A DNA stretch of 64,000 bases, taken from assembly GCF_005925345.1 (NCBI RefSeq), contig NZ_SSHJ01000011.1:62001-126000 (forward strand). The letters are read 5' to 3'. Under the pieces are notes generated by a model. That model saw nothing but the letters and a program-made list of their open reading frames with translations, had not been told where the DNA came from and did no database searches. This document shows positions 51,801 to 61,080 of the stretch, in pieces; positions within the stretch are counted from its first letter, which is position 1, and each line of letters begins with the position of its first letter. This DNA is from Pedobacter ureilyticus. GTDB taxonomy: Bacteria > Bacteroidota > Bacteroidia > Sphingobacteriales > Sphingobacteriaceae. Both the position numbers and the translations under genes were made by a program.

Positions 51801-52231
51801 TAGATACCGATTTGGAAATGCACATCCCCGATAGCTACGTAACCAATATTACCGAGCGCTATAATTTATACACTGAGATTTCTAAGCTAGAAACCGAACA
51901 GCAAATTACTGTTTTTGAAAAGCGCATGAGAGACCGCTTTGGACCGGTGCCACTGCAAGTTTTAGCCATGCTTAAAGTGGTTCGCCTACAGTGGATTGCC
52001 AAGAAATTAGGATTTGAAAAAGTAAGCTACAAAAAAAATGTGCTTAGAGGCTATTTTGTAAGCGATAAACAGTCAAAATTTTTCGATTCGGAAACGTTTA
52101 ACCGCATACTGGCTTTTGCGCAATTACATCCACGGCTGTGTAATTTGAAAGAGGTAAAAGATAGTTTACGTATTTCTTTTGATAATATTGGGAATATAGA
52201 CGAGGCGGTAGAAATGTTGGAAATGATATAG
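48899..52231 (+). CDS. mfd: Transcription-repair coupling factor Mfd
   Basis: The 1110-residue protein has the UvrB-homology N-terminal domains (FVLPNREEAAYFSSDL, GQFSIRGGIVDIFSF), the RNA-polymerase interaction domain (LKPGDFVTHIDHGIGKYAGLEKV near 435-460), and RecG-like helicase motifs (Walker A GDVGFGKTEVALRAAF, DEEQ box VIDEEQKFGV, TATPIPRTL, MRGRVGRS), followed by a C-terminal TRCF domain. Mfd removes stalled polymerase at lesions and recruits UvrA. The start is GTG at 48899, with an in-frame stop two codons upstream and no ATG within the first conserved segment. Confidence 0.96.
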   Translation: MNVRDLINRFKTDPRVLAIAQSLNNSKSKTQIKGLVGSSDAVVALTTYFLQHKPQLFVLPNREEAAYFSSDLESILGKEILLFPSSFRKPFEFTQVDTANVLARAEVLNELNHQSEYGQIVVTYPEALAEKVIDRSVLEKNTLEINVGASLGIDFINEFLFEYDFERSEFVYEPGQFSIRGGIVDIFSFSHDLPYRIEFFGDEVESIRTFEIESQLSVDEVKTLTIVPNVQAKFLTENNISLLDYIENDTQLWFKDVAFTLDIIRGGYKKANELWKALSAAEKQANPNWLDPKFAFSDEKMVADLFQDFTLIEFGKQFFYQTDNVFNFDTKPQPSFNKDFNLLIHNFKENEKLGVNNFIFTNSSKQVERLYAILDDIDKTVKFIPIHTPLREGFLDVAQKVAFYTDHQIFDRFYKYQLKKGYQRSQAITLKELRDLKPGDFVTHIDHGIGKYAGLEKVETNGKMQEMIRLVYADNDLLYVNINSLNRIAKYSGKDGTPPKMNKLGTEAWDKLKKSTKKKVKDIARDLIKLYALRKAQVGTAFAPDSYLDTELEASFIYEDTPDQMKATNDVKKDMEAPHPMDRLVCGDVGFGKTEVALRAAFKAVANGKQVAVLVPTTILALQHFKTFSSRLKEFPCTVDYINRFKTSKQIKESLEKLAEGKVDIIIGTHRLLSKDVKFKDLGLMVIDEEQKFGVAAKEKLRALRVSVDTLTLTATPIPRTLHFSLMGARDLSIINTPPPNRQAVTTELHVFNDKLLQEAIQFELDRGGQVFFVHNRVQDLTQLAGLIQTLVPTARIGIAHGQLDGDKLEDVMLDFINGEKDVLVATTIIETGLDVPNANTIIINHAHMFGLSDLHQMRGRVGRSNKKAFCYLLSLPLSTLTDEARKRLSAIEEFSDLGSGFNIAMRDLDIRGSGNLLGGEQSGFIAEIGFEMYNKILDEAIQELKDDEFKDLFKDQPERPYVSFTQVDTDLEMHIPDSYVTNITERYNLYTEISKLETEQQITVFEKRMRDRFGPVPLQVLAMLKVVRLQWIAKKLGFEKVSYKKNVLRGYFVSDKQSKFFDSETFNRILAFAQLHPRLCNLKEVKDSLRISFDNIGNIDEAVEMLEMI

Positions 52232-52251
52232 ATTTTTTAAATAGGCTGTTG

Positions 52252-52304
52252 GGGCAAATAATTATTTGCCCTTATTTATCTATTGGGCGAATGATTATTC
52301 GCCC
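52252..52304. repeat. Tandem 20-base palindromes after mfd
   Basis: GGGCAAATAATTATTTGCCC (52252-52271) is a perfect 20-base palindrome. A second, 52285-52304, begins GGGCGAAT and ends ATTCGCCC with one G-T-type mismatch pair. A related element lies at 19745-19766. They sit between the convergent mfd and DUF58 genes and could terminate transcription from both directions. Confidence 0.8.
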
Positions 52305-52326
52305 GTACAGAAATCCGCCCCAGCGG

Positions 52327-53673
52327 TTAGATTTGCTGCCTCGCCTTAATGGCCAAATATCTATTTACTACATTTACGGTAAGGTTTTGCGGTGCTGTAA
52401 GCAAGCTCAAAATTCCATGCTTTGTTAATTCTTTAACCATCAAACGTTTTTCGTAAGCAAATTTCTCTGCAATGGTTTTAACGTATATTCCTTCTATATC
52501 TTTAGCACTTTCATCACTTAAGGTTTTAAGCGTTGTATTTTCAAAAAACACTACCAATAACAAATGGTATTTAGCTATGCGTTTAAGGTAGGGCAATTGT
52601 CGTTCTAATGCCGACATGCTTTCGAAATTGGTAAAGAAAACCACCAAGCTGCGTTGTTTTAGTGCCGAACGTAAGCTTACAAAAAGTGCTTCCATATCAG
52701 TTTCCAGGTAGCGGGTTTTTTCTTTGTACAGCACCTCCATTATTTTATTGAGCTGCATGGGCCTACGGTCTGCCAATACCACATTCTTAGTTTTCTCAGC
52801 AACGGTAATTAGCCCTGCTTTATCTTGCTTAATTAAAGCCACGCTTGATAAAATAAGACTGGCATTGATGGCATAATCTAACAAACTCATGCTCTTAAAA
52901 GGCATTTTCATTGCCCTCGATTTATCGATCACGCAATAAATATGCTGCGAACGCTCTTCGATGTAGGTGTTTACCATCAAGTCAGACCTACGGGCAGTAG
53001 CTTTCCAGTTAATGGTTCTAAAATCATCGCCAGCTACATAGTTTTTCACTTGGTCGAACTCCATGCTATGGCCAACCCTTCTAATTTTTTTAATGCCAAC
53101 ATCAGTTAAGTGGTTAGAGATGGCCATTAGCTCGTATTCTCTTAATTTTAAAAAGGAAGGGTAAACGGGCACCATTCCAGCACCAGCGATGTTAAATCGT
53201 CTGCTAACTAAACCCAAAGGAGACTTGACAAACAATCTGGTAAAACCAAAATCGTACTCGCCACGCTTGGTAGGCCTTAAAAAATAGTTGATGATTTTTT
53301 GCTCCCGCGATCTCAGTGTAGTGTTAAACCACAAATCACGCTTTTGAAACTGAAACGGAATTTCATCGATGATCCCCACCGAAACATGGAAAGGATAAAA
53401 GTTCTCCAAATAGATTTTCAGTTCGTTATCGTCTCCATTGCTTAAACGTTCGGGCACATCTCTTCGTAGAAACACGGCTTTTTTTGACGAATGAAGAAGG
53501 TAAATATCTGTTAAGACCAATAAAAAAAATACTCCAAATGCCATATAAGGCAAATCGCCCAAGATGGGTAAAAAGAAAGCGAAAAGAAACAAGGCCGAGC
53601 AAATGCCCAGAACTATGAAAAGTCTGTTTTCGAGAAACAGGTTGATATAGAATTTTCTAAATAGTTTTTTCAT
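52327..53673 (-). CDS. DUF58 / VWA-like membrane protein of the MoxR cluster
   Basis: The 448-residue protein has two N-terminal hydrophobic segments (about 15-58), a beta-rich region (RDVPERLSNGDDNELKIYLEN), the DUF58 hallmark VGHSMEFDQVKNYVAGDDFRTINWKATARR near 205-235 (in segments) and a von Willebrand A-like half with IYCVIDKSRAM. The metal-site motif DxSxS reads D-K-S-R-A, so the last Ser is Ala. DUF58 proteins pair with MoxR ATPases, which are thought to help assemble or metal-load client complexes. It is the last gene of the cluster. Confidence 0.88.
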   Translation of the reverse strand: MKKLFRKFYINLFLENRLFIVLGICSALFLFAFFLPILGDLPYMAFGVFFLLVLTDIYLLHSSKKAVFLRRDVPERLSNGDDNELKIYLENFYPFHVSVGIIDEIPFQFQKRDLWFNTTLRSREQKIINYFLRPTKRGEYDFGFTRLFVKSPLGLVSRRFNIAGAGMVPVYPSFLKLREYELMAISNHLTDVGIKKIRRVGHSMEFDQVKNYVAGDDFRTINWKATARRSDLMVNTYIEERSQHIYCVIDKSRAMKMPFKSMSLLDYAINASLILSSVALIKQDKAGLITVAEKTKNVVLADRRPMQLNKIMEVLYKEKTRYLETDMEALFVSLRSALKQRSLVVFFTNFESMSALERQLPYLKRIAKYHLLLVVFFENTTLKTLSDESAKDIEGIYVKTIAEKFAYEKRLMVKELTKHGILSLLTAPQNLTVNVVNRYLAIKARQQI

Positions 53674-53686
53674 TTATCTACTTTTT

Positions 53687-53771
53687 CGTAATTTCGATGA
53701 GGAGGTACGACGAAGAGAAATCTCACCACTTGTTAGATTTCTCCATTCGCTACGCTCCAGTCGAAATGACG
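53687..53771. repeat. Extragenic palindrome downstream of moxR (GAGAAATCT type)
   Basis: The left arm begins CGTAATTTCGA and ends AGAGAAATCT; the right arm begins AGATTTCTCC and ends TCGAAATGACG (at 53771). It fills the moxR-DUF58 gap and resembles the element at 54806-54880 on the other side of moxR. Confidence 0.7.
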
Positions 53772-53796
53772 ACAATATGTACGTTATGTGCTCAAA

Positions 53797-54774
53797 CTAT
53801 CTCGGCACCTCTATTTTCTTAATAATTTGTGAAATGATATCCGAAGTTGTTAACCCTTCCATTTCTTTTTCTGGACTTAGCATTACTCGATGCGCCAACA
53901 CCGGCGTAGCTACTTTAATGATATCGTCTGGCGTAACAAAATCTCTACCAGCCATTGCCGCAATGGCTTTAGCACTGTTAATTAACGCTAAAGAAGCCCT
54001 TGGCGAAGCTCCTAAGTACAAGGCTTTATTTTGGCGGGTTTCGTGAACTATCTGTGCGGCATAGGCCAACAATTTCGGCTCAACAAATAGTGATTTAATT
54101 ACCGCCCTTAGTGCAATAATTTGTGTAATAGCCAACACTGGCTTAATGTCTTCCAGCTGATGCTGGGTATTTTGTTGGTGTTGCTGCGTTAAAATCTCTA
54201 TCTCTTCTTCTAAAGATGGATATTTGATTTCGACCTTGAACAGAAAACGATCCAATTGCGCCTCTGGCAAACGGTAAGTCCCTTCTTGCTCTATTGGATT
54301 TTGTGTGGCCAGTACCATGAAAGGCTCTTCCAGTTTGTAAGTAGTTCCATCTACAGTAACTTGACGTTCTTCCATCGCTTCGAACAAGGCCGATTGTGTT
54401 TTTGCAGGTGCTCGGTTAATTTCATCTACCAAGATGATATTACCAAATATTGGTCCTTGCCTAAACTGAAACTCTGCCGTTTTTGGACTAAAAACTGCGG
54501 TACCTAACACATCAGAAGGCATTAAATCTGGCGTAAATTGTATCCGCGAAAACGTGGCTGCAATACTTTTGGCAACTAACTTTGCACTTAACGTTTTGGC
54601 TACACCAGGCACTCCTTCTAACAATAGGTGCCCATTGGCCAGCAGGCCAGCAATTAGCAAATCAATAGTTTCTGTTTGGCCTACAATTATTTTACCTAAT
54701 TGCTGCCTAATTTGCTCTACCGCTTGGCTCAGCTCGCTTAAATCGGTACGCTGGTTAAACATTTCTTGTTCCAT
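53797..54774 (-). CDS. MoxR-family AAA+ ATPase
   Basis: This 325-residue AAA+ ATPase has Walker A GVPGVAKTLSAKLVA (residues about 54-68), Walker B IILVDEINRAPAKTQSALFEAMEERQVT, sensor 1 VLATQNPIEQEGTYRLPEAQLDRF, and a C-terminal lid with YLGASPRASLALINSAKAIAAMAGRDFVTPDDI. The MoxR group works as a chaperone-like ATPase with VWA/DUF58 partners. The DUF58 gene follows on the same strand, and related palindromes lie on both sides of this gene. Client identity is not shown by sequence. Confidence 0.93.
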   Translation of the reverse strand: MEQEMFNQRTDLSELSQAVEQIRQQLGKIIVGQTETIDLLIAGLLANGHLLLEGVPGVAKTLSAKLVAKSIAATFSRIQFTPDLMPSDVLGTAVFSPKTAEFQFRQGPIFGNIILVDEINRAPAKTQSALFEAMEERQVTVDGTTYKLEEPFMVLATQNPIEQEGTYRLPEAQLDRFLFKVEIKYPSLEEEIEILTQQHQQNTQHQLEDIKPVLAITQIIALRAVIKSLFVEPKLLAYAAQIVHETRQNKALYLGASPRASLALINSAKAIAAMAGRDFVTPDDIIKVATPVLAHRVMLSPEKEMEGLTTSDIISQIIKKIEVPR

Positions 54775-54805
54775 GTTTATAATTTGTTTTTGTTTAGGCT
54801 ATTTC

Positions 54806-54880
54806 CGTCATCTCGACAATAGGAGAGATCTTTTCTTGAGCTAGATTTCTCCCTTAATTGTATTTCGGTTAGAAATGACG
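54806..54880. repeat. Extragenic palindrome upstream of moxR (GAGAAATCT type)
   Basis: The left arm begins CGTCATCTCGAC and includes GGAGAGATC; the right arm begins AGATTTCTCCC and ends GAAATGACG (at 54880). The outer ends and the AGATTTCTCC core match the element at 53687-53771. Confidence 0.65.
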
Positions 54881-54889
54881 ATTAAACCA

Positions 54890-56080
54890 TTACCTATCTA
54901 GTTTATAAAACTGCTCTATTAGTTTATTGAAATCAATTAAATATTGGTCATCGATCTTTGCTTTTTCATCCAATTTGTTAAATGAGTTGATATACCCTAC
55001 CAACTGCTCAATTAGTGCGGCATCAATTCCTGTAATTTTTACTAAGGTTTCTTTAAATTCCTGATCTAATTCTGTTGTTTTTAAGCGATACTTATTTCTT
55101 ACATACTCCAAAAAATAATTGATTTTCTTTTCAATGATATCATGATGGTTACGCTGCTGATAATATACCCTCCCAATAGTTTGGGCAAATTCTACTGAAC
55201 TGTTAGTTAATGGATCTAGGAGAGGAATAATGCGTTGCCTGCGTTTCATTTCGTAAAGCACAAAAATTAGCAAGCCAACTAAGGCCAAATAATAAGCCCA
55301 CCGCAATTCATCGTATCCAAATAAAACCCTAAATACCGATTGTTCGTTTGCCGCCGGTCGCACATAATACTCATCCCAAATAATGGTTTTAGCCGATGGT
55401 AGATATGAAAACACCTTTGCAACATAATCTGAACCATTTTCGTTTAACAAATTATAGTTGGTAAATAACTGAGGATTTGGACAAAGCAACAAGCTGCCCT
55501 TGCCAAAGCGATATTGTATAAGGTTAGGCTTTATCTCATATTTCCTCCCCAAAACTAATGCCTTGGTCGTATCCAAACCACTAAAGTATTGAGCAGCAAT
55601 TCCTTTTTCGAAATAGTAATCCATTTCCCGTTTTAGATGCGGAGATGTGAAGTTGATAGGATATTTTGTTTTATTCTGAAAATCGAAATCTGATCCTAAG
55701 TTTATTTTTAGCGAATCGGCCAGTGCTCCATCCATTTGAAAAGCAGCAATAAAAATGCGGTTACCTGCTTCCATATATTTACGCATGGCCACAAAATCAA
55801 GATTTTCTACTTTTAGGGTTGATGCAATGATGAAATAATTTGAACTTCCCTTTGGAACAGTTTTAAGCGTATTATAAATATCGGTCTTGTAAACTTTTTG
55901 TTCCGCTTTAGGAAAAACATCCTGAATGTGTTGGCGTAAAATATACGTACCAAAGGGATTTTTATCCTCAGGCAGATAAGTAGGATTCCAATTTATTTCT
56001 GCGGGCTTGGTGTACTGTGCCACAATGTAAAGCACCAATAGCAATCCACCAAAAATGAAATATATTCTTAATCCTTTCAT
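54890..56080 (-). CDS. DUF4350-domain membrane protein of the MoxR cluster
   Basis: This 396-residue protein has an N-terminal membrane segment (4-22, IYFIFGGLLLVLYIVAQY), a periplasmic DUF4350 domain beginning NPTYLPEDKNPFGTYILRQHI with IWDEYYVRP near 234-242, and a second membrane segment near 256-275, followed by a cytoplasmic helical tail of 120 residues (RVYYQQRNHHDIIEKKINYFLEYV). The DUF4350 fold resembles sugar- or peptidoglycan-binding GATase-like domains; its role is unknown. It overlaps the DUF4129 gene by 4 bases (ATGA), so the two are translationally coupled. Confidence 0.8.
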   Translation of the reverse strand: MKGLRIYFIFGGLLLVLYIVAQYTKPAEINWNPTYLPEDKNPFGTYILRQHIQDVFPKAEQKVYKTDIYNTLKTVPKGSSNYFIIASTLKVENLDFVAMRKYMEAGNRIFIAAFQMDGALADSLKINLGSDFDFQNKTKYPINFTSPHLKREMDYYFEKGIAAQYFSGLDTTKALVLGRKYEIKPNLIQYRFGKGSLLLCPNPQLFTNYNLLNENGSDYVAKVFSYLPSAKTIIWDEYYVRPAANEQSVFRVLFGYDELRWAYYLALVGLLIFVLYEMKRRQRIIPLLDPLTNSSVEFAQTIGRVYYQQRNHHDIIEKKINYFLEYVRNKYRLKTTELDQEFKETLVKITGIDAALIEQLVGYINSFNKLDEKAKIDDQYLIDFNKLIEQFYKLDR

Positions 56081-56829
56081 CTCAATGTAGTATTAAATTG
56101 TTGAAAGGATTGTTGAATTTGAGCGAAAGATACTTTATCGACAGGGAAGTCGCCATACCAAATGTACTCAAATTGATAAGTTAAGTTAGCGAAAGCTTCA
56201 TGTCCATTTTCGCCCACCATCTCTTGCACATAAGCCGAGTTGGTCTTGTTGGGCAGCCAATCTATAATTTCTCTATCACTTAGTTGTTTTAAGGTTTGCA
56301 AGTACAGTAAGCGAACAGTCAATCGATAATTCCCATTCTGCAGGCTGTTGGCAATCTCTTCGTCAAAACTGATCTCGTGGATGTTCTCTAAATGCTCATC
56401 GTAAGGTACATCTACCGCTTTAGATTTACCCGTAAACCAATTAAAATCTACGCCAATGAGCTTAAAAACAGCAAATATAATAACACCTATACCAATAGCT
56501 AGGGTAGCATATTTTAATACTTTAGGCCAAATAGATGGGCCAGAGCTTGTTTGTCTTTCACCAAACAACCTGTTGATCCAATTCCAAAAACTACGCCAAA
56601 ACCTATCCCACCAGCTTAGGCTTTCGGGTTCTTCATCGCCATATTGAAACTCCTTTTGCGATTTATATCTTTGGATAGTTTCGTTATCAAATTGCTTAAC
56701 CTGAGTTTTACTGCTATCTAGTTTTAGCAACATCGAATCTTTGGGCTTGCTTAATACTGGCTTGACCGCTTGCCGAGCCTGCAAATCCTCCGCAAAAAAC
56801 AATAAAACAACTAAGAGCAGTATCCGCAT
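56077..56829 (-). CDS. DUF4129-type membrane protein of the MoxR cluster
   Basis: The protein has 250 residues from the ATG at 56829, one base after the upstream stop; a longer frame from 56886 runs back into the neighbouring gene. It has a signal peptide (residues 1-18), an aromatic amphipathic stretch (LSWWDRFWRSFWNWINRLFG, about 71-90), one membrane helix (103-127) and a cytoplasmic C-terminal DUF4129 domain with LQNGNYRLTVRLLYLQTLKQLSDREIIDW and NLTYQFEYIWYGDFPVD. DUF4129 is known mainly from clusters with MoxR, DUF58 and DUF4350. Confidence 0.8.
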   Translation of the reverse strand: MRILLLVVLLFFAEDLQARQAVKPVLSKPKDSMLLKLDSSKTQVKQFDNETIQRYKSQKEFQYGDEEPESLSWWDRFWRSFWNWINRLFGERQTSSGPSIWPKVLKYATLAIGIGVIIFAVFKLIGVDFNWFTGKSKAVDVPYDEHLENIHEISFDEEIANSLQNGNYRLTVRLLYLQTLKQLSDREIIDWLPNKTNSAYVQEMVGENGHEAFANLTYQFEYIWYGDFPVDKVSFAQIQQSFQQFNTTLR

Positions 56830-56830
56830 A

Positions 56831-57703
56831 TTAATAATCTTCGTCTGGATGTACAACTGAAGCCTGTGTATTTCCAAACTCTTCAATTCTTTCCATTAAA
56901 CCTTGGCTTTCTTTTCTTTCGGCCAAGCTAAAATAAATAAATGCAATGGCTACCAACGGAATAATAGCAAATACTTGAGCGATGTAGATAGAGATTGAAG
57001 TAAACACATGATAGCCCTTTAGCAGCTGCAAATCGGAACCAGAAAAAGTGCTGACCATCATGAGTATATACGAAGGTGCATACACCACCGACATACAAAC
57101 TGCGGTAATGATGCCTATTACCAACAAAGTTGCAAAAGTTAACCACCAGTTCTGTTTTACTAACGCAAATGACCTACTAAAAGCATTGCCAAAATCAGCA
57201 TTCTCTAAAACCATTACGGCAAAAAAGATAGAAAATGCTGGTGTAACATAAATTCCGGGGATTAAACACAACACCGTACAGATGATCCAAAGGATATAGA
57301 TTAAAAAACCGCTCCAAAATACCCTAAAGAAATAATATTTAAAGTAGCTCCATACTTCTTCTACTGTTGGCGCTACATTACCTTTGGCAATGTATAAACT
57401 TATAAAACTAAGGATAGACACACACATGGCCGTGTAGTTGAGGATAGAGAACAACGTGGCAAACCAATAACGCCATCCAAAAATATTACTTAGTGTGCTA
57501 CCACCATAAGCATAACCACTACTCGAATCTAAAATATGCCACTGCATAAAAACACTAGAAAGTACGCCTCCTAAAATAAACACGCCACAAAGTGAGAAAA
57601 ACGTTTTAAGCAGTGCTTTAATATTCTGTTTAATGAAGAGTAGCGTTCCAGAAATTACGCCTTCAAAATCTCTAATTTGTTTAAATTCTATGTTTTCTTT
57701 CAT
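56831..57703 (-). CDS. Multi-pass membrane protein of the MoxR cluster
   Basis: This 290-residue protein has about six transmembrane segments (about 33-52, 85-108, 133-158, 160-178, 193-215, 237-262) with a cytoplasmic charged tail (ERKESQGLMERIEEFG). It resembles DUF4013/GDPD-membrane-domain-like proteins, but I cannot name the family with confidence. It starts in a one-base overlap with the SpoIIM-like gene (TAATG) and ends one base before the DUF4129 gene, so it is firmly part of the operon. Confidence 0.7.
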   Translation of the reverse strand: MKENIEFKQIRDFEGVISGTLLFIKQNIKALLKTFFSLCGVFILGGVLSSVFMQWHILDSSSGYAYGGSTLSNIFGWRYWFATLFSILNYTAMCVSILSFISLYIAKGNVAPTVEEVWSYFKYYFFRVFWSGFLIYILWIICTVLCLIPGIYVTPAFSIFFAVMVLENADFGNAFSRSFALVKQNWWLTFATLLVIGIITAVCMSVVYAPSYILMMVSTFSGSDLQLLKGYHVFTSISIYIAQVFAIIPLVAIAFIYFSLAERKESQGLMERIEEFGNTQASVVHPDEDY

Positions 57704-58662
57704 TATAAATTTTCTTGAGCGGAGGTTTTTCTAAACAACTGATAAGGGTAGATCACCACATACCAAACCATAAACGTTAACGACGATGCTAATATAAAAA
57801 TGCTTAACCAAATGGGCATGCCAGTATGTCTAGTCACAAAGCCTTCTACAAATGCAGCCAGCAAGATAATAGGAATAATGCCTATGGCTATTTTAGTGGC
57901 GTCTTTCCCGCTACGTTTAAAAGCCTGTAAACGGGTATAGGTTTTAGGAAAAAGCAGGCCGTGCCCCAATACCAAGCCAGCACCACCCACTACCACAATA
58001 GAAAGAATTTCTAACGTTCCGTGAATCCAAATGACTAGGATAGACTGGGCACCCAAGCCTTTGCTAAAAAAGTAATACTCGAAAGCTCCCAGCATAATGC
58101 CATTACGCACCAAGTAAAAAACTGGACCAATAGACAATAAAACCCCACTTACAAACATGACAAAAGAGACCCACGTGTTATTGGCAGCAATCTTAAAAAA
58201 CATGGCAAATTCACTCTCGTTTTTGTAAACGCCAAACGGGTCGCCTTTGGCAATATTTTCATTGGTCATATTTACATAGCGGTCGCCCAAAATTAGGCGT
58301 ACAAAACGATCGTCGTACTTGGCAGACAACACGCCAATACTTACCGCTAACGCAAAGAAAATGAATGAGTAAAGAATTTGTTTGCGATAGGTATAAAATA
58401 GCAGCGGCAACTCATACTTCCAATAGCTAAAAAACCGGCCTTTTTCTTCCTTTTTATTTTTATAAATGGCCTGATGAAATACAGCAGCCAAACCATTAAG
58501 ATATGCTGTGGTTTTAGACTTTGGGTAGAAAGTTTTTGCATAAGCCAAATCGTTGGTAATTTCTACAAAACGTTGGGCAAGCTCATCGGGGCTATCGGTC
58601 TTTAGCGTCTCGTAGCGCTTCCATTTTTCAGCATTTTGTTTTACAAAGAGCGCTTCTTTCAT
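57703..58662 (-). CDS. SpoIIM/DUF95-like membrane protein
   Basis: This 319-residue protein has a cytoplasmic N-terminus of about 110 residues (FVKQNAEKWKRYETL, YLNGLAAVFHQAIYK) and about five to six transmembrane segments with the DUF95 core SFVMFVSGVLLSIGPVFYLVRNGIMLGAF and WIHGTLEILSIVVVGGAGLVLGHGLLFP (in segments). SpoIIM in Bacillus scaffolds forespore-membrane remodelling, but this family also occurs in non-spore-formers beside MoxR. Here it is the first gene of the six-gene minus-strand cluster and is divergent from the RDD gene. Confidence 0.87.
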   Translation of the reverse strand: MKEALFVKQNAEKWKRYETLKTDSPDELAQRFVEITNDLAYAKTFYPKSKTTAYLNGLAAVFHQAIYKNKKEEKGRFFSYWKYELPLLFYTYRKQILYSFIFFALAVSIGVLSAKYDDRFVRLILGDRYVNMTNENIAKGDPFGVYKNESEFAMFFKIAANNTWVSFVMFVSGVLLSIGPVFYLVRNGIMLGAFEYYFFSKGLGAQSILVIWIHGTLEILSIVVVGGAGLVLGHGLLFPKTYTRLQAFKRSGKDATKIAIGIIPIILLAAFVEGFVTRHTGMPIWLSIFILASSLTFMVWYVVIYPYQLFRKTSAQENL

Positions 58663-58754
58663 TTATTTGACGTATTGCGAGAGATATTTTTTGTTAAAAT
58701 AAAACAAAAAATGTTAGCTACCATAAAAAACAACGTCAAGTTTTAAAAAATTTA

Positions 58755-58887
58755 GCCACAGATGCACAGATTTTAATCAATACCATAAGTTGTGCTAAAT
58801 TTTAATCATTAGGCAAATAAAACTTTCATTGATATCCATGAGTGCAGTAAGCGGAAATATTTTATCTATGATTGGTACATCTGTGGC
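58755..58887. repeat. Extragenic palindrome, GCCACAGATGCACA family, copy 3
   Basis: The left end GCCACAGATGCACAGATTTT (58755-58774) matches copy 1 at all 20 positions. The right end ATCTGTGGC (58879-58887) pairs with the first nine bases. The 133-base element overlaps the likely -33 region of the RDD-gene promoter and occupies most of the divergent gap. Confidence 0.75.
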
Positions 58888-58896
58888 TAAAAAAAT

Positions 58897-58904
58897 TATA
58901 TTTG
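58897..58904 (+). promoter_or_regulatory. RDD-gene -7 promoter box
   Basis: TATATTTG matches TAnnTTTG and ends 4 bases before the ATG at 58909. A TTG at 58872-58874, 22 bases upstream and inside the palindrome, could be the -33 element. Confidence 0.5.
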
Positions 58905-58908
58905 GTTA

Positions 58909-59649
58909 ATGGAAACCATCAAAATTAACACTAGTCAACACGTAGAAATAGATTATCCCGTAGCTGGTTTGGGCGAGCGTGTAGCCGCCTATCTTATCGA
59001 CTTTGCTATGTTCTTGATCATTTATTTCTTTGCGCTTATTGCCTTTGCAATTACAGGCTTAGAAAATCGATTCAACAATAGTGCTACTGTAATTTTGATC
59101 ATTGTATTTGGAATTTGCTATGTATTTTACGATTTGCTTTGCGAAGTAGCATTTAACGGACAAAGCCTAGGCAAAAAGCTATTGAAAATAAAAGTAGTAA
59201 GCCTAGACGGTGGAAGAGCCAGTATTGGGCAATATTTTATACGCTGGGTTTTTAGAATAGCAGATTTTACGCTTACAGCCAATCTATTAGGTTTCATTAG
59301 TGTTGCCGTTTCTGAAAAAAAGCAACGCATTGGCGATATCGTTGCCGGCACTACCTTAATTAGAACTGTTCCGGCTACTAAAATTGAGCATATTGCTTTT
59401 CATCCGGTAGATAACGAAGAATACACCCCTATTTTCGACAATGCGATGATGCTGAGCGACCATGACATAGAACTTATTCACGAGGTGGTGCGCACCTATT
59501 ACACCACCTATAACACACAGCTCATCTATCAAATGGCGGCAAAAGTTTCAGGGCATTTGGGTGTAAATATTCCAGAGGGAATGAATGAAATGCAGTTCTT
59601 AAAAACCGTTTCTTCAGATTATATTTATTTGACTTCGAGGGCGGTTTAA
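58909..59649 (+). CDS. RDD-family membrane protein of the MoxR cluster
   Basis: This 246-residue protein has an RDD domain in the first 150 residues with three to four membrane helices: the R-D motif reads GLGERVAAYLIDFAMFLIIY near 21-40 and the second half FNGQSLGKKLLKIKVV and RWVFRIADF. A soluble C-terminal extension of about 95 residues (SDHDIELIHEVVRTYYTTY) follows. RDD proteins are uncharacterised transporter-like or membrane-organising proteins often linked with SpoIIM, MoxR and DUF58. The 3' end overlaps the convergent SGNH hydrolase gene by 4 bases. Confidence 0.87.
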   Translation: METIKINTSQHVEIDYPVAGLGERVAAYLIDFAMFLIIYFFALIAFAITGLENRFNNSATVILIIVFGICYVFYDLLCEVAFNGQSLGKKLLKIKVVSLDGGRASIGQYFIRWVFRIADFTLTANLLGFISVAVSEKKQRIGDIVAGTTLIRTVPATKIEHIAFHPVDNEEYTPIFDNAMMLSDHDIELIHEVVRTYYTTYNTQLIYQMAAKVSGHLGVNIPEGMNEMQFLKTVSSDYIYLTSRAV

Positions 59650-60257
59650 CGTTTTTCTATGATTTTTTCTGCGATTAATTTAGTCCATTCTGTGTACATC
59701 TTACCAGAAGGATGCAAACCATCGGCTGCAATGAGGTTTGGTTTTTTAACCGCTTGGCGGGAGATTGGCGTGATATCTACATAAGTAACATCGCTAGATT
59801 CAGTTTCCTGTCTGTTTATTTCATTAAAAGCATCAATCTCTTTGCTTATCGTTTTTAAGTCTCTGCCGCTATTTTTGGCAAATTCTGTAACGCCCCAATC
59901 GGGAATTGAAACTACGTAAACTTTGTTTTTATCTCCGCCAGCAAAGCTGATGGCTGTTTCTAACAATTCAGTAAATTCTTTACAGTAGGTTTCTTGCGAA
60001 TAGCCGCGGTACTGGTTGTTTACACCAACTAGCAAAGTTACTAAGTCAAAGGTTTCGTTAATTTGCTCTTGTTGTATCGCATGACGAAGTTCATCGGTTG
60101 TCCAACCAGTTTTGGCAATTACCTTGGGGTTTTTGAAATGAATAGCTTTAGCTTTTAGGAACTCAACCAGTTGGTACGGAAAAGATTCTAATTGTTCAAC
60201 AGCCTCGCCAATGGTGTACGAATCGCCTAATGCTAAATAAGAAAGTGGTTTTACCAT
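59646..60257 (-). CDS. SGNH/GDSL hydrolase
   Basis: The 203-residue protein has the SGNH blocks: LALGDSYTIGEA with the nucleophile Ser13 (block I), TGWTTDEL with the Gly position (block II), VGVNNQYRG with Asn (block III), and the C-terminal ADGLHPSGKMY with Asp-x-x-His (block V). It has no signal peptide, so it is a cytoplasmic esterase or acetylesterase-like enzyme of unknown substrate. It ends by overlapping the RDD gene and starts 10 bases after the DUF2752 gene on the same strand. Confidence 0.87.
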   Translation of the reverse strand: MVKPLSYLALGDSYTIGEAVEQLESFPYQLVEFLKAKAIHFKNPKVIAKTGWTTDELRHAIQQEQINETFDLVTLLVGVNNQYRGYSQETYCKEFTELLETAISFAGGDKNKVYVVSIPDWGVTEFAKNSGRDLKTISKEIDAFNEINRQETESSDVTYVDITPISRQAVKKPNLIAADGLHPSGKMYTEWTKLIAEKIIEKR

Positions 60258-60267
60258 ACTAAAAACT

Positions 60268-60606
60268 TTAATGAATGTGCTGAAACAGCATTTTGTAAAG
60301 ATAGCTTGCCACCATTACAAAACCGGTAAAAAAATACATTACCTTAAGCCATTTCGCATTTTGATCAAATTTAAATAGCCAAGAGCCAACTCCGGCAGTA
60401 AAACTCAACAGAAACGGAACCGTTGGAGGGTACAACTGAAAGCTCTGTACAAAATCTCCATTGAGCAAAGCCAATACCGAACGTTGAAAGCCACAGCCAG
60501 GGCAATCAAAGCCAAATAAATATTTGAATGGACAGGGCAACAAAAAAATATCCGCTCTACTTAAAATTAGCAAAGCGGATATTTTTTGAATATGTAAAAC
60601 CAGCAC
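60268..60606 (-). CDS. DUF2752 membrane protein (copy B)
   Basis: This 112-residue protein has about three hydrophobic segments and the DUF2752 motif PCPFKYLFGFDCPGCGFQRSV near 24-44, again CPGCGxxR. GTG at 60606 is the start; an in-frame stop lies directly before it. It follows the DUF5684-like gene by 3 bases and precedes the SGNH hydrolase gene by 10. It is divergent from copy A at 48343-48651, so recent duplication is unlikely. Confidence 0.78.
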   Translation of the reverse strand: MLVLHIQKISALLILSRADIFLLPCPFKYLFGFDCPGCGFQRSVLALLNGDFVQSFQLYPPTVPFLLSFTAGVGSWLFKFDQNAKWLKVMYFFTGFVMVASYLYKMLFQHIH

Positions 60607-60609
60607 CTA

Positions 60610-61080
60610 TTAAAACTGATTTTGATTTTGCTGGTTAAATGGGTCGTTTGGATTACCGAAGCCGTTGCCGAAACCAGCCTGGTTTGCCTCCGCAGCAGAT
60701 GGCCCTAAATATTTTGCACTGCCAAAGCCTAAAATTGGCCAGAAGATAAAGCCAAGCAAAATTAAACCTACAGTAAAGCCTTCTTCTTTACCATAACTCT
60801 TGCTGATAAGGTTATAAAGCCAAACCATAAATACAATATTTACACAAGGAATAAGTAACCATAGCAACCAAATGGTTGGTTTACCTACAATTTCTATCAT
60901 GATATAAATATTATAGATAGGAATAATTGCCGCCCAGCCTGGTTTGCCAGCTTTTTCGAATGTCTTCCACATTCCGGCAATAGCAACAATAATAATTGCT
61001 AAATAAATGATAAAAAAAGTAGCACCAATACCCGCTAAGATACCAGAACCTCCAGAAGAGTAATCAGATGAATAGTCCAT
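60610..61080 (-). CDS. Small multi-helix membrane protein, DUF5684-like
   Basis: This 156-residue protein has a Ser/Gly-rich N-terminus (about 1-15), four hydrophobic segments (about 17-37, 48-67, 69-90, 100-122) and the conserved KAGKPGWAAIIPIYNIYIMIEIVGKP and GKEEGFTVGLILLGFIFWPILGFG pattern of DUF5684-type proteins, then an Asn/Gln/Gly-rich tail (QNQNQF end). No function is known. It forms a tight pair with the downstream DUF2752 gene, paralleling the DUF2752-TM2 pair at 47981-48651. Confidence 0.75.
   Translation of the reverse strand: MDYSSDYSSGGSGILAGIGATFFIIYLAIIIVAIAGMWKTFEKAGKPGWAAIIPIYNIYIMIEIVGKPTIWLLWLLIPCVNIVFMVWLYNLISKSYGKEEGFTVGLILLGFIFWPILGFGSAKYLGPSAAEANQAGFGNGFGNPNDPFNQQNQNQF

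What the first reader, a model, noticed from the sequence alone, without database searches (positions are those of the whole stretch)
52327..59649. MoxR-DUF58-DUF4350-DUF4129-SpoIIM-RDD membrane cluster: best candidate for an undescribed system
Six minus-strand genes and one divergent RDD gene encode a AAA+ ATPase, a VWA-like membrane partner with a degenerate metal motif (D-K-S-R-A), a DUF4350 protein with a large cytoplasmic tail, a DUF4129 protein with an amphipathic tryptophan-rich stretch, an unnamed six-helix protein, a SpoIIM-like protein and an RDD protein. The set recurs in many bacteria, but its client and purpose are not established. The parts suggest an ATPase-driven machine that assembles or remodels something in the inner membrane.
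Basis: partly seen in the sequence, partly recalled or inferred. Interest (0 to 1): 0.7.

Follow-up and report, generated by a model that had tools for sequence, protein, structure and literature searches.

The report
Conserved MoxR-DUF58-SpoIIM inner-membrane gene cluster
Seven neighbouring genes, kept together in very different bacteria, look like one ATP-driven machine of the inner membrane; its job is unproven, but the few available data point to upkeep of the cell envelope or cell division.

Summary
Confirmed: all seven genes are present as stated. The set is old and crosses phyla. In a Bacteroidota sample, 49 of 50 full-length SpoIIM genes stand beside DUF4350 in it; in Actinomycetota, 30 of 33 loci with enough flank carry all seven genes; variants occur in Alpha- and Gammaproteobacteria. 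The "unnamed six-helix" protein belongs near the GPDPase_memb clan, is modelled with a CysZ/CTL1-like fold, and is naturally fused to SpoIIM in two records. The DUF58 metal site is degenerate throughout (0 of 60 rows read DxSxS), while a DUF58 elsewhere in the same genome keeps DVSSS. SpoIID and SpoIIP are absent, so it is no engulfment machine. Data on mycobacterial counterparts (SpoIIM and RDD co-purify with a divisome protein; DUF4350 needed for slow growth) and synteny with mtrA (19 of 31) lean to envelope or division. I favour a MoxR-DUF58 motor acting on a SpoIIM/GPDPase_memb-like/RDD membrane core through DUF4350 and DUF4129. Makarova et al. (2015) predicted secretion or membrane remodelling from part of the set, so "undescribed" is only partly right. 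The client is unknown.

The parts
52327..53673 (-). DUF58 protein, 448 aa: two N-terminal TM helices, then VWA-like cytoplasmic domain with degenerate MIDAS (D250-K-S-R-A)
   Evidence: PF01882 5e-20; hydropathy 20-38, 42-60; a third stretch 263-281 lies inside the VWA domain and is taken as false; D250 and R253 in 58 of 60 rows
53797..54774 (-). MoxR AAA+ ATPase, 325 aa; Walker A region G54-T61 and Walker B D117-E118 conserved
   Evidence: PF07726 7e-65, PF17863 1.4e-25; 19 rows; solved relative 2r44, 1.6e-83
54890..56080 (-). DUF4350 protein, 396 aa: N-terminal TM, extracytoplasmic domain, second TM about 259-277, C-terminal cytoplasmic tail of about 115 aa (topology inferred)
   Evidence: PF14258 4.9e-10; hydropathy 3-21; 259-277 only at the lower threshold; R280, Q282, R283, P286, N293, F298, Y306, R328 invariant in 14 rows
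56077..56886 (-). DUF4129 protein: signal-peptide-like start, short periplasmic part with amphipathic aromatic stretch, one TM, cytoplasmic DUF4129 domain (topology inferred); likelier start near 56829
   Evidence: PF13559 1.1e-8; hydropathy 17-35, 128-146
57703..58662 (-). SpoIIM-family protein, 319 aa: N-terminal helical domain plus TM bundle; N161, N162, H214, G215, E218, R244, E273 invariant in 40 rows
   Evidence: PF01944 1.8e-38; pLDDT 94.5
58663..58908 (.). 246-bp gap between the divergent SpoIIM and RDD genes
   Evidence: in 52200-59700 promoter-like matches are no more than in shuffles (17 against 22.4 +/- 4.0)
58909..59649 (+). RDD-family membrane protein, 246 aa, divergent from SpoIIM
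   Evidence: PF06271 1.9e-21; next to SpoIIM on the other strand in 78 of 80 actinobacterial loci by gene order

Best explanation
The seven genes encode one inner-membrane complex. SHOWN by sequence: the set, with nearly fixed order, is shared by Bacteroidota and Actinomycetota and, in modified form, by some Alpha- and Gammaproteobacteria; SpoIIM and the GPDPase_memb-like protein are one protein in two records. INFERRED: SpoIIM, the GPDPase_memb-like protein and RDD form a membrane core. A MoxR hexamer is held under the membrane by DUF58, whose VWA domain plugs the ring as NorD does with NorQ. Because the metal site is degenerate, DUF58 does not grip a passing client by a bridging metal ion but stays docked on fixed partners, probably the cytoplasmic tails of DUF4350 and DUF4129. 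ATP hydrolysis then changes the state of the membrane core and of the extracytoplasmic DUF4350 domain. The purpose is upkeep or remodelling of the envelope, likely linked to growth and division, not secretion or sporulation.
Against: No interaction between these proteins was tested here. In 5 of 19 Bacteroidota loci no DUF58 is found next to the set, and in L051 and L156 no MoxR either, so the motor is separable. No ORPH match in L052, L053, L155, L157 and L158. mtrA is missing in 12 of 31 loci and may be old synteny only. The Rv0954 list holds neither the MoxR nor the DUF58 counterpart. Five actinobacterial DUF58 rows read DTSRT, which might still bind metal, and two of five bat-operon DUF58 proteins have lost DxSxS as well. 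The two fusions align end to end (34% identity), so they probably are one event, not two. In M. chelonae double lysogens six genes of the set fall about 70- to 220-fold in living cells (PMC8191103, passages), which suggests that the set is dispensable there. The MoxR trees do not prove one origin.
Confidence: 0.5

Rival explanations
1. Dedicated chaperone that inserts a cofactor or metal into, or matures, one membrane enzyme encoded elsewhere (as NorQ/NorD do for nitric oxide reductase).
For: A MoxR/VWA pair with a known client works this way (PMC9976466, passages).
Against: No enzyme is a constant neighbour: among 362 non-core ORFs of at least 100 aa in 26 Bacteroidota loci (window included) only one family recurs in three or more loci, a 200-aa membrane protein in 4. 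The set is made mostly of membrane proteins rather than a chaperone pair. The MIDAS that NorD uses for its client is degenerate here.
Confidence: 0.17
2. Secretion system, as predicted for archaeal DUF4350 + MoxR + vWA loci.
For: Makarova et al. 2015 (PMC5898192, sections 3.2 and 3.3 read), who relate DUF4350 to GldG.
Against: No vWA (other than DUF58), S-layer or Ig-like domain among the ten proteins from DUF58 to DUF5684 in the window; no recurrent passenger gene beside the set in 26 Bacteroidota loci.
Confidence: 0.12
3. Stress-tolerance operon of the Bat kind.
For: Same MoxR-DUF58 pair; the bat-operon MoxR matters under heat and oxidative stress in Riemerella (PMC11834572, passages).
Against: No BatA/B-type VWA, TPR or BatD domain in the window cluster; bat-type MoxR proteins group apart (98/91; 85/85 together with the own-genome paralogue); Bat deletion in Leptospira biflexa gave no such phenotype (PMC3557215, abstract).
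Confidence: 0.1
4. Conflict or anti-phage system built on a MoxR-vWA core.
For: MoxR-vWA conflict systems are published (PMC7159879, search listing only); weak PADLOC matches.
Against: PADLOC matches are generic: DolB 31 bits and IetA 25 bits on the AAA+ domain, PD-T4-6 17 bits on RDD, none for the other five proteins. Nearly fixed gene order across phyla is unlike patchy defence islands (inference).
Confidence: 0.03
5. Conserved neighbours that are co-regulated but do not form one complex.
For: MoxR and DUF58 are missing from some loci; the SpoIIM/RDD pair changes orientation to the rest between phyla.
Against: Natural SpoIIM fusion; SpoIIM and RDD counterparts co-purify with the same bait.
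Confidence: 0.08

Closest known systems
arCOG01314/DUF4350 + MoxR + vWA predicted system (Makarova et al. 2015)
   Same: DUF4350, a COG0714 AAA+ ATPase and a vWA-type protein in one locus; SpoIIM beside vWA + AAA+ noted for bacteria
   Different: archaeal loci carry secreted vWA and S-layer/Ig-like proteins; the bacterial set has DUF58, DUF4129, a GPDPase_memb-like protein and RDD instead
NorQ/NorD and RavA/ViaA (MoxR + VWA chaperones)
   Same: MoxR ring paired with a VWA protein; RavA/ViaA act at the inner membrane and bind phospholipids
   Different: NorD needs its MIDAS for the client, here the MIDAS is degenerate; seven genes with several membrane proteins instead of a pair
Bat (Bacteroides aerotolerance) operon
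   Same: MoxR followed by DUF58
   Different: then VWA, TPR and BatD genes; DUF58 without N-terminal TM helices in 5 of 5 bat-type loci, with DxSxS in 3 of 5
MoxR-DUF58-transglutaminase loci (Listeria example; PFNA operon of bifidobacteria)
   Same: MoxR, DUF58 with two TM helices and, in the Listeria example, a DUF4129 domain
   Different: DUF4129 stands behind a transglutaminase in one protein; no SpoIIM, RDD or DUF4350 in the stretch annotated
DMP engulfment complex SpoIID/SpoIIM/SpoIIP
   Same: SpoIIM family member
   Different: no SpoIID or SpoIIP match in this genome

Membership tests
MoxR AAA+ ATPases | AAA_3 domain with Walker A/B and AAA lid | tested here: met
   7e-65; lid 1.4e-25; G54, P56, G57, A59, K60, T61, D117, E118 conserved in 19 rows
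MoxR AAA+ ATPases (MRP type) | neighbouring DUF58 gene | tested here: met
   window; found in 14 of 19 fetched Bacteroidota loci
NorQ/NorD-type MoxR-VWA chaperones | intact MIDAS DxSxS in the VWA partner | tested here: not met
   window D-K-S-R-A; 0 of 60 rows DxSxS, one of them a gap at the site
NorQ/NorD-type MoxR-VWA chaperones | VWA finger inserted in the MoxR pore | not testable with these tools
Bat operon | BatA/BatB VWA, TPR and BatD genes beside MoxR-DUF58 | tested here: not met
   no such domain among the ten proteins 52327-61080
DUF4350 + MoxR + vWA system of Makarova 2015 | DUF4350, COG0714-type ATPase and VWA-type protein in one locus | tested here: met
   (the VWA-type protein is DUF58)
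DUF4350 + MoxR + vWA system of Makarova 2015 | S-layer/Ig-like and secreted vWA proteins in the locus | tested here: not met
   ten proteins 52327-61080
SpoIIM (PF01944) | SpoIIM domain over the curated cut-off | tested here: met
   (132.5 bits, cut-off 26.9)
DMP engulfment complex | SpoIID and SpoIIP in the genome | tested here: not met
   no match to PF07454 or PF08486 in the 99.98% complete genome; the B. subtilis control rings in both
GPDPase_memb clan (PF10110 and relatives) | profile match of the six-helix protein | tested here: inconclusive
   window protein itself no match; of 17 aligned members 9 match PF10110 (best 6.1e-11), 3 UPF0259, 2 DUF7847
CysZ / CTL1 transporters | shared fold | tested here: inconclusive

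The most novel reading that the evidence does not exclude
SpoIIM, the CysZ/CTL-like protein and RDD form a conduit or scramblase for a lipid or lipid head group, gated by ATP hydrolysis in a MoxR ring that is permanently docked through a DUF58 whose metal site has been given up. This would be a new class of AAA+-driven membrane transporter or remodeller serving the envelope at growth and division sites.
Probability: 0.12. Interest if true: 0.85.

Novelty: new variant of a known kind. Interest (0 to 1): 0.5.

Why it matters
MoxR ATPases are widespread but few have known clients. This set fixes the likely partners of one deeply conserved branch, places the orphan part, and links it to the envelope through scattered published data that I found brought together in no paper. 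It also offers a role for SpoIIM proteins of bacteria that do not sporulate.
Full report
Observation. The minus-strand run is SpoIIM, a six-helix protein (ORPH below), DUF4129, DUF4350, MoxR, DUF58, with RDD divergent across a 246-bp gap. The first four touch or overlap; gaps of 115 and 123 bp precede MoxR and DUF58. By look, the gene beyond DUF58 is mfd and a lipB lies further upstream; between RDD and it Pfam shows a GDSL lipase, DUF2752 and DUF5684.

Conservation in Bacteroidota. In 148 genomes drawn across the phylum, SpoIIM passes its cut-off in 51 and DUF4350 in 47 (at E <= 0.001, 53 and 73, the latter with many long GldG-like frames). Of 50 full-length SpoIIM genes, 48 start within 3.3 kb of a DUF4350 match; one of the other two (G101, L153) turned out to hold the set without RDD, its DUF4350 found only by my own profile. 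The remaining one, G017, has SpoIIM elsewhere (L154) and a locus with only DUF4129, DUF4350 and MoxR (L052). DUF4350 frames of 380-520 aa in genomes without SpoIIM occur in 3 genomes. I fetched 19 loci. By profiles built from these genes: DUF4350 19 of 19 (by selection), DUF4129 19, MoxR 18, SpoIIM 18, ORPH 16 plus one fused (L043), RDD 16, DUF58 14; 12 have all seven as separate genes and L043 has all with the fusion. Misses: DUF58 in L037, L039, L042, L051, L052; MoxR in L051; SpoIIM in L052; ORPH in L052, L053; RDD in L042, L052, L053. Of six further loci with the set read (L153, L155-L159), ORPH is not found in L155, L157 and L158, and MoxR and DUF58 not in L156; L155 ends with its contig. 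Outside the set nothing is constant: among 362 other ORFs of at least 100 aa in 26 loci only one family recurs in three or more, a 200-aa membrane protein in 4.

Conservation elsewhere. A search with three actinobacterial SpoIIM sequences gave 80 named loci. In 78 of 80 RDD sits beside SpoIIM on the other strand; of 33 with at least 6.5 kb on the operon side 30 have all seven genes, the others 2 (L087), 6 (L111, no RDD) and 6 (L122, whose stretch ends before ORPH). The order ORPH-DUF4129-DUF4350-MoxR-DUF58 is that of the window, save that two neighbours print swapped in L128 and L058, where hits fall on shared or fragmentary ORFs; the SpoIIM/RDD pair is placed otherwise to it than in the window. 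In Nonomuraea (L059) I read DUF4129 and DUF4350 in the DNA between ORPH and MoxR. Rhizobium and Paracoccus plasmids carry DUF805 genes, two proteins in the DUF4129 and DUF4350 places (Rhizobium: Pfam matches below the cut-offs, 3.6e-4 and 7.3e-6; Paracoccus: none), MoxR, DUF58, SpoIIM, RDD. Catenovulum carries RDD, SpoIIM, a 515-aa protein with a DUF4129-like end, DUF4350, MoxR, DUF58. Other phyla were not surveyed; the MoxR loci that I read from Listeria, Cetobacterium and Leptospira are of other kinds.

SpoIIM. Forty sequences from two phyla keep N161, N162, H214, G215, E218, G229, P239, R244, E273 and T277 (with L39 and P86) without exception. The model is confident (pLDDT 94.5) and has no significant Foldseek match in the PDB. 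SpoIID and SpoIIP are absent from the genome, so the engulfment role does not carry over.

DUF58. Across 60 rows (15 Bacteroidota with the window, 43 Actinomycetota of which one is a gap here, 2 Alphaproteobacteria) D250 and R253 are kept in 58 each and DxSxS in none; five actinobacterial rows read DTSRT. The Catenovulum protein reads DSGKR. The DUF58 paralogue in the window's own genome reads DVSSS. Of five bat-operon DUF58 proteins three read DxSxS and two DQRxS, and the Listeria protein beside a transglutaminase lacks the aspartate. The motif is typical of this set, but loss of DxSxS is not unique to it. In NorD the MIDAS is needed for the client but not for binding NorQ (PMC9976466, passages).

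What others have seen. Makarova et al. 2015 (PMC5898192, sections 3.2 and 3.3 read) is the closest prior description. PMC8093794 (one section read) lists 19 proteins that co-purify with Rv0954 in M. tuberculosis; Rv3694c and Rv3695 are two of them, with LamA, PbpA and PknH. PMC8191103 (passages) names these as counterparts of SpoIIM and RDD genes of M. chelonae, and shows DUF58, MoxR, SpoIIM, RDD, DUF4350 and the Rv3689-like membrane protein falling together (log2 -6.2 to -7.8) with neighbouring glpF and glpK; the words deletion and deleted do not occur in its text, but so large a drop over one block could be one (my inference). PMC2685279 (passage) lists Rv3691 among 9 genes both required for slow growth of BCG and upregulated then. 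PMC12067865 (passages) recounts MoxR1 beside ripAB and its reported interaction with RipA, a different MoxR locus. In 19 of 31 actinobacterial loci with more than 1.2 kb beyond ORPH a gene like mtrA lies there; in one, L116, Pfam shows a response regulator, a histidine kinase and LpqB, which I recall as the mtrA-mtrB-lpqB order. None of this proves function; together it leans to envelope and division.

History. A tree of 41 MoxR proteins sets the cluster's MoxR apart from bat-type MoxR (85/85, two ungrouped rows not counted) and does not reject one clade against the eight others (p-AU 0.35). A first tree with a fragmentary row did not group them. A single old origin is possible, not shown.

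Verdict. Real, ancient, partly described, client unknown. The likeliest reading is a MoxR-DUF58 motor fixed to a membrane core for envelope upkeep (0.5). Gene content, order, fusion, the degenerate metal site and the predicted fold of the orphan rest on data; the complex, the motor action and the purpose are inferred.

Noticed in passing
L036:2811-3425 (-), L039:2839-3450 (-), L046:11244-11873 (+), L158:12794-13396 (+): A roughly 200-aa membrane protein stands on the far side of RDD in 4 of 26 Bacteroidota loci, the only recurrent neighbour outside the set.
   Followed up: partly
L042:9602-11080 (+): A D-Ala-D-Ala carboxypeptidase (Peptidase_S13, 2.5e-106) follows MoxR where DUF58 normally sits.
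   Followed up: no
L051:8302-8901 and L156:7012-7845: Where MoxR and DUF58 are missing, the next gene after DUF4350 is a sigma-70 family factor (L051) or an AraC-type regulator (L156).
   Followed up: partly
L116 and L119: Actinomadura physcomitrii appears to carry the cluster twice on different scaffolds; in the second, four of the seven genes were found in the stretch held.
   Followed up: no
L055 and L152 (own genome, C49 and C6): The genome's other AAA_3 MoxR lies beside a gene that looks like a SurA-type peptidyl-prolyl isomerase, its other DUF58 lies without MoxR near a gene that looks like lysyl-tRNA synthetase, and two VWA matches sit together on C12, so bat-type parts look scattered.
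   Followed up: partly
L146:9713-10504 (-): A BPSS1780 family membrane protein, weakly DUF7847-like (8.5e-4), lies close to the Catenovulum cluster on the other strand; DUF7847 also matched two of 17 ORPH members.
   Followed up: no
L056:2560-3643, L057:3251-3691: DUF805 membrane proteins stand at the head of the alphaproteobacterial clusters, where no ORPH was found.
   Followed up: partly
L109:6257-8992: Two S-adenosylhomocysteine hydrolase genes in tandem beside the Nocardiopsis cluster; sahH-like ORFs occur in 60 of 83 actinobacterial loci.
   Followed up: no
window 59646-59649: The RDD gene and the convergent GDSL lipase gene overlap by four bases at their ends.
   Followed up: no
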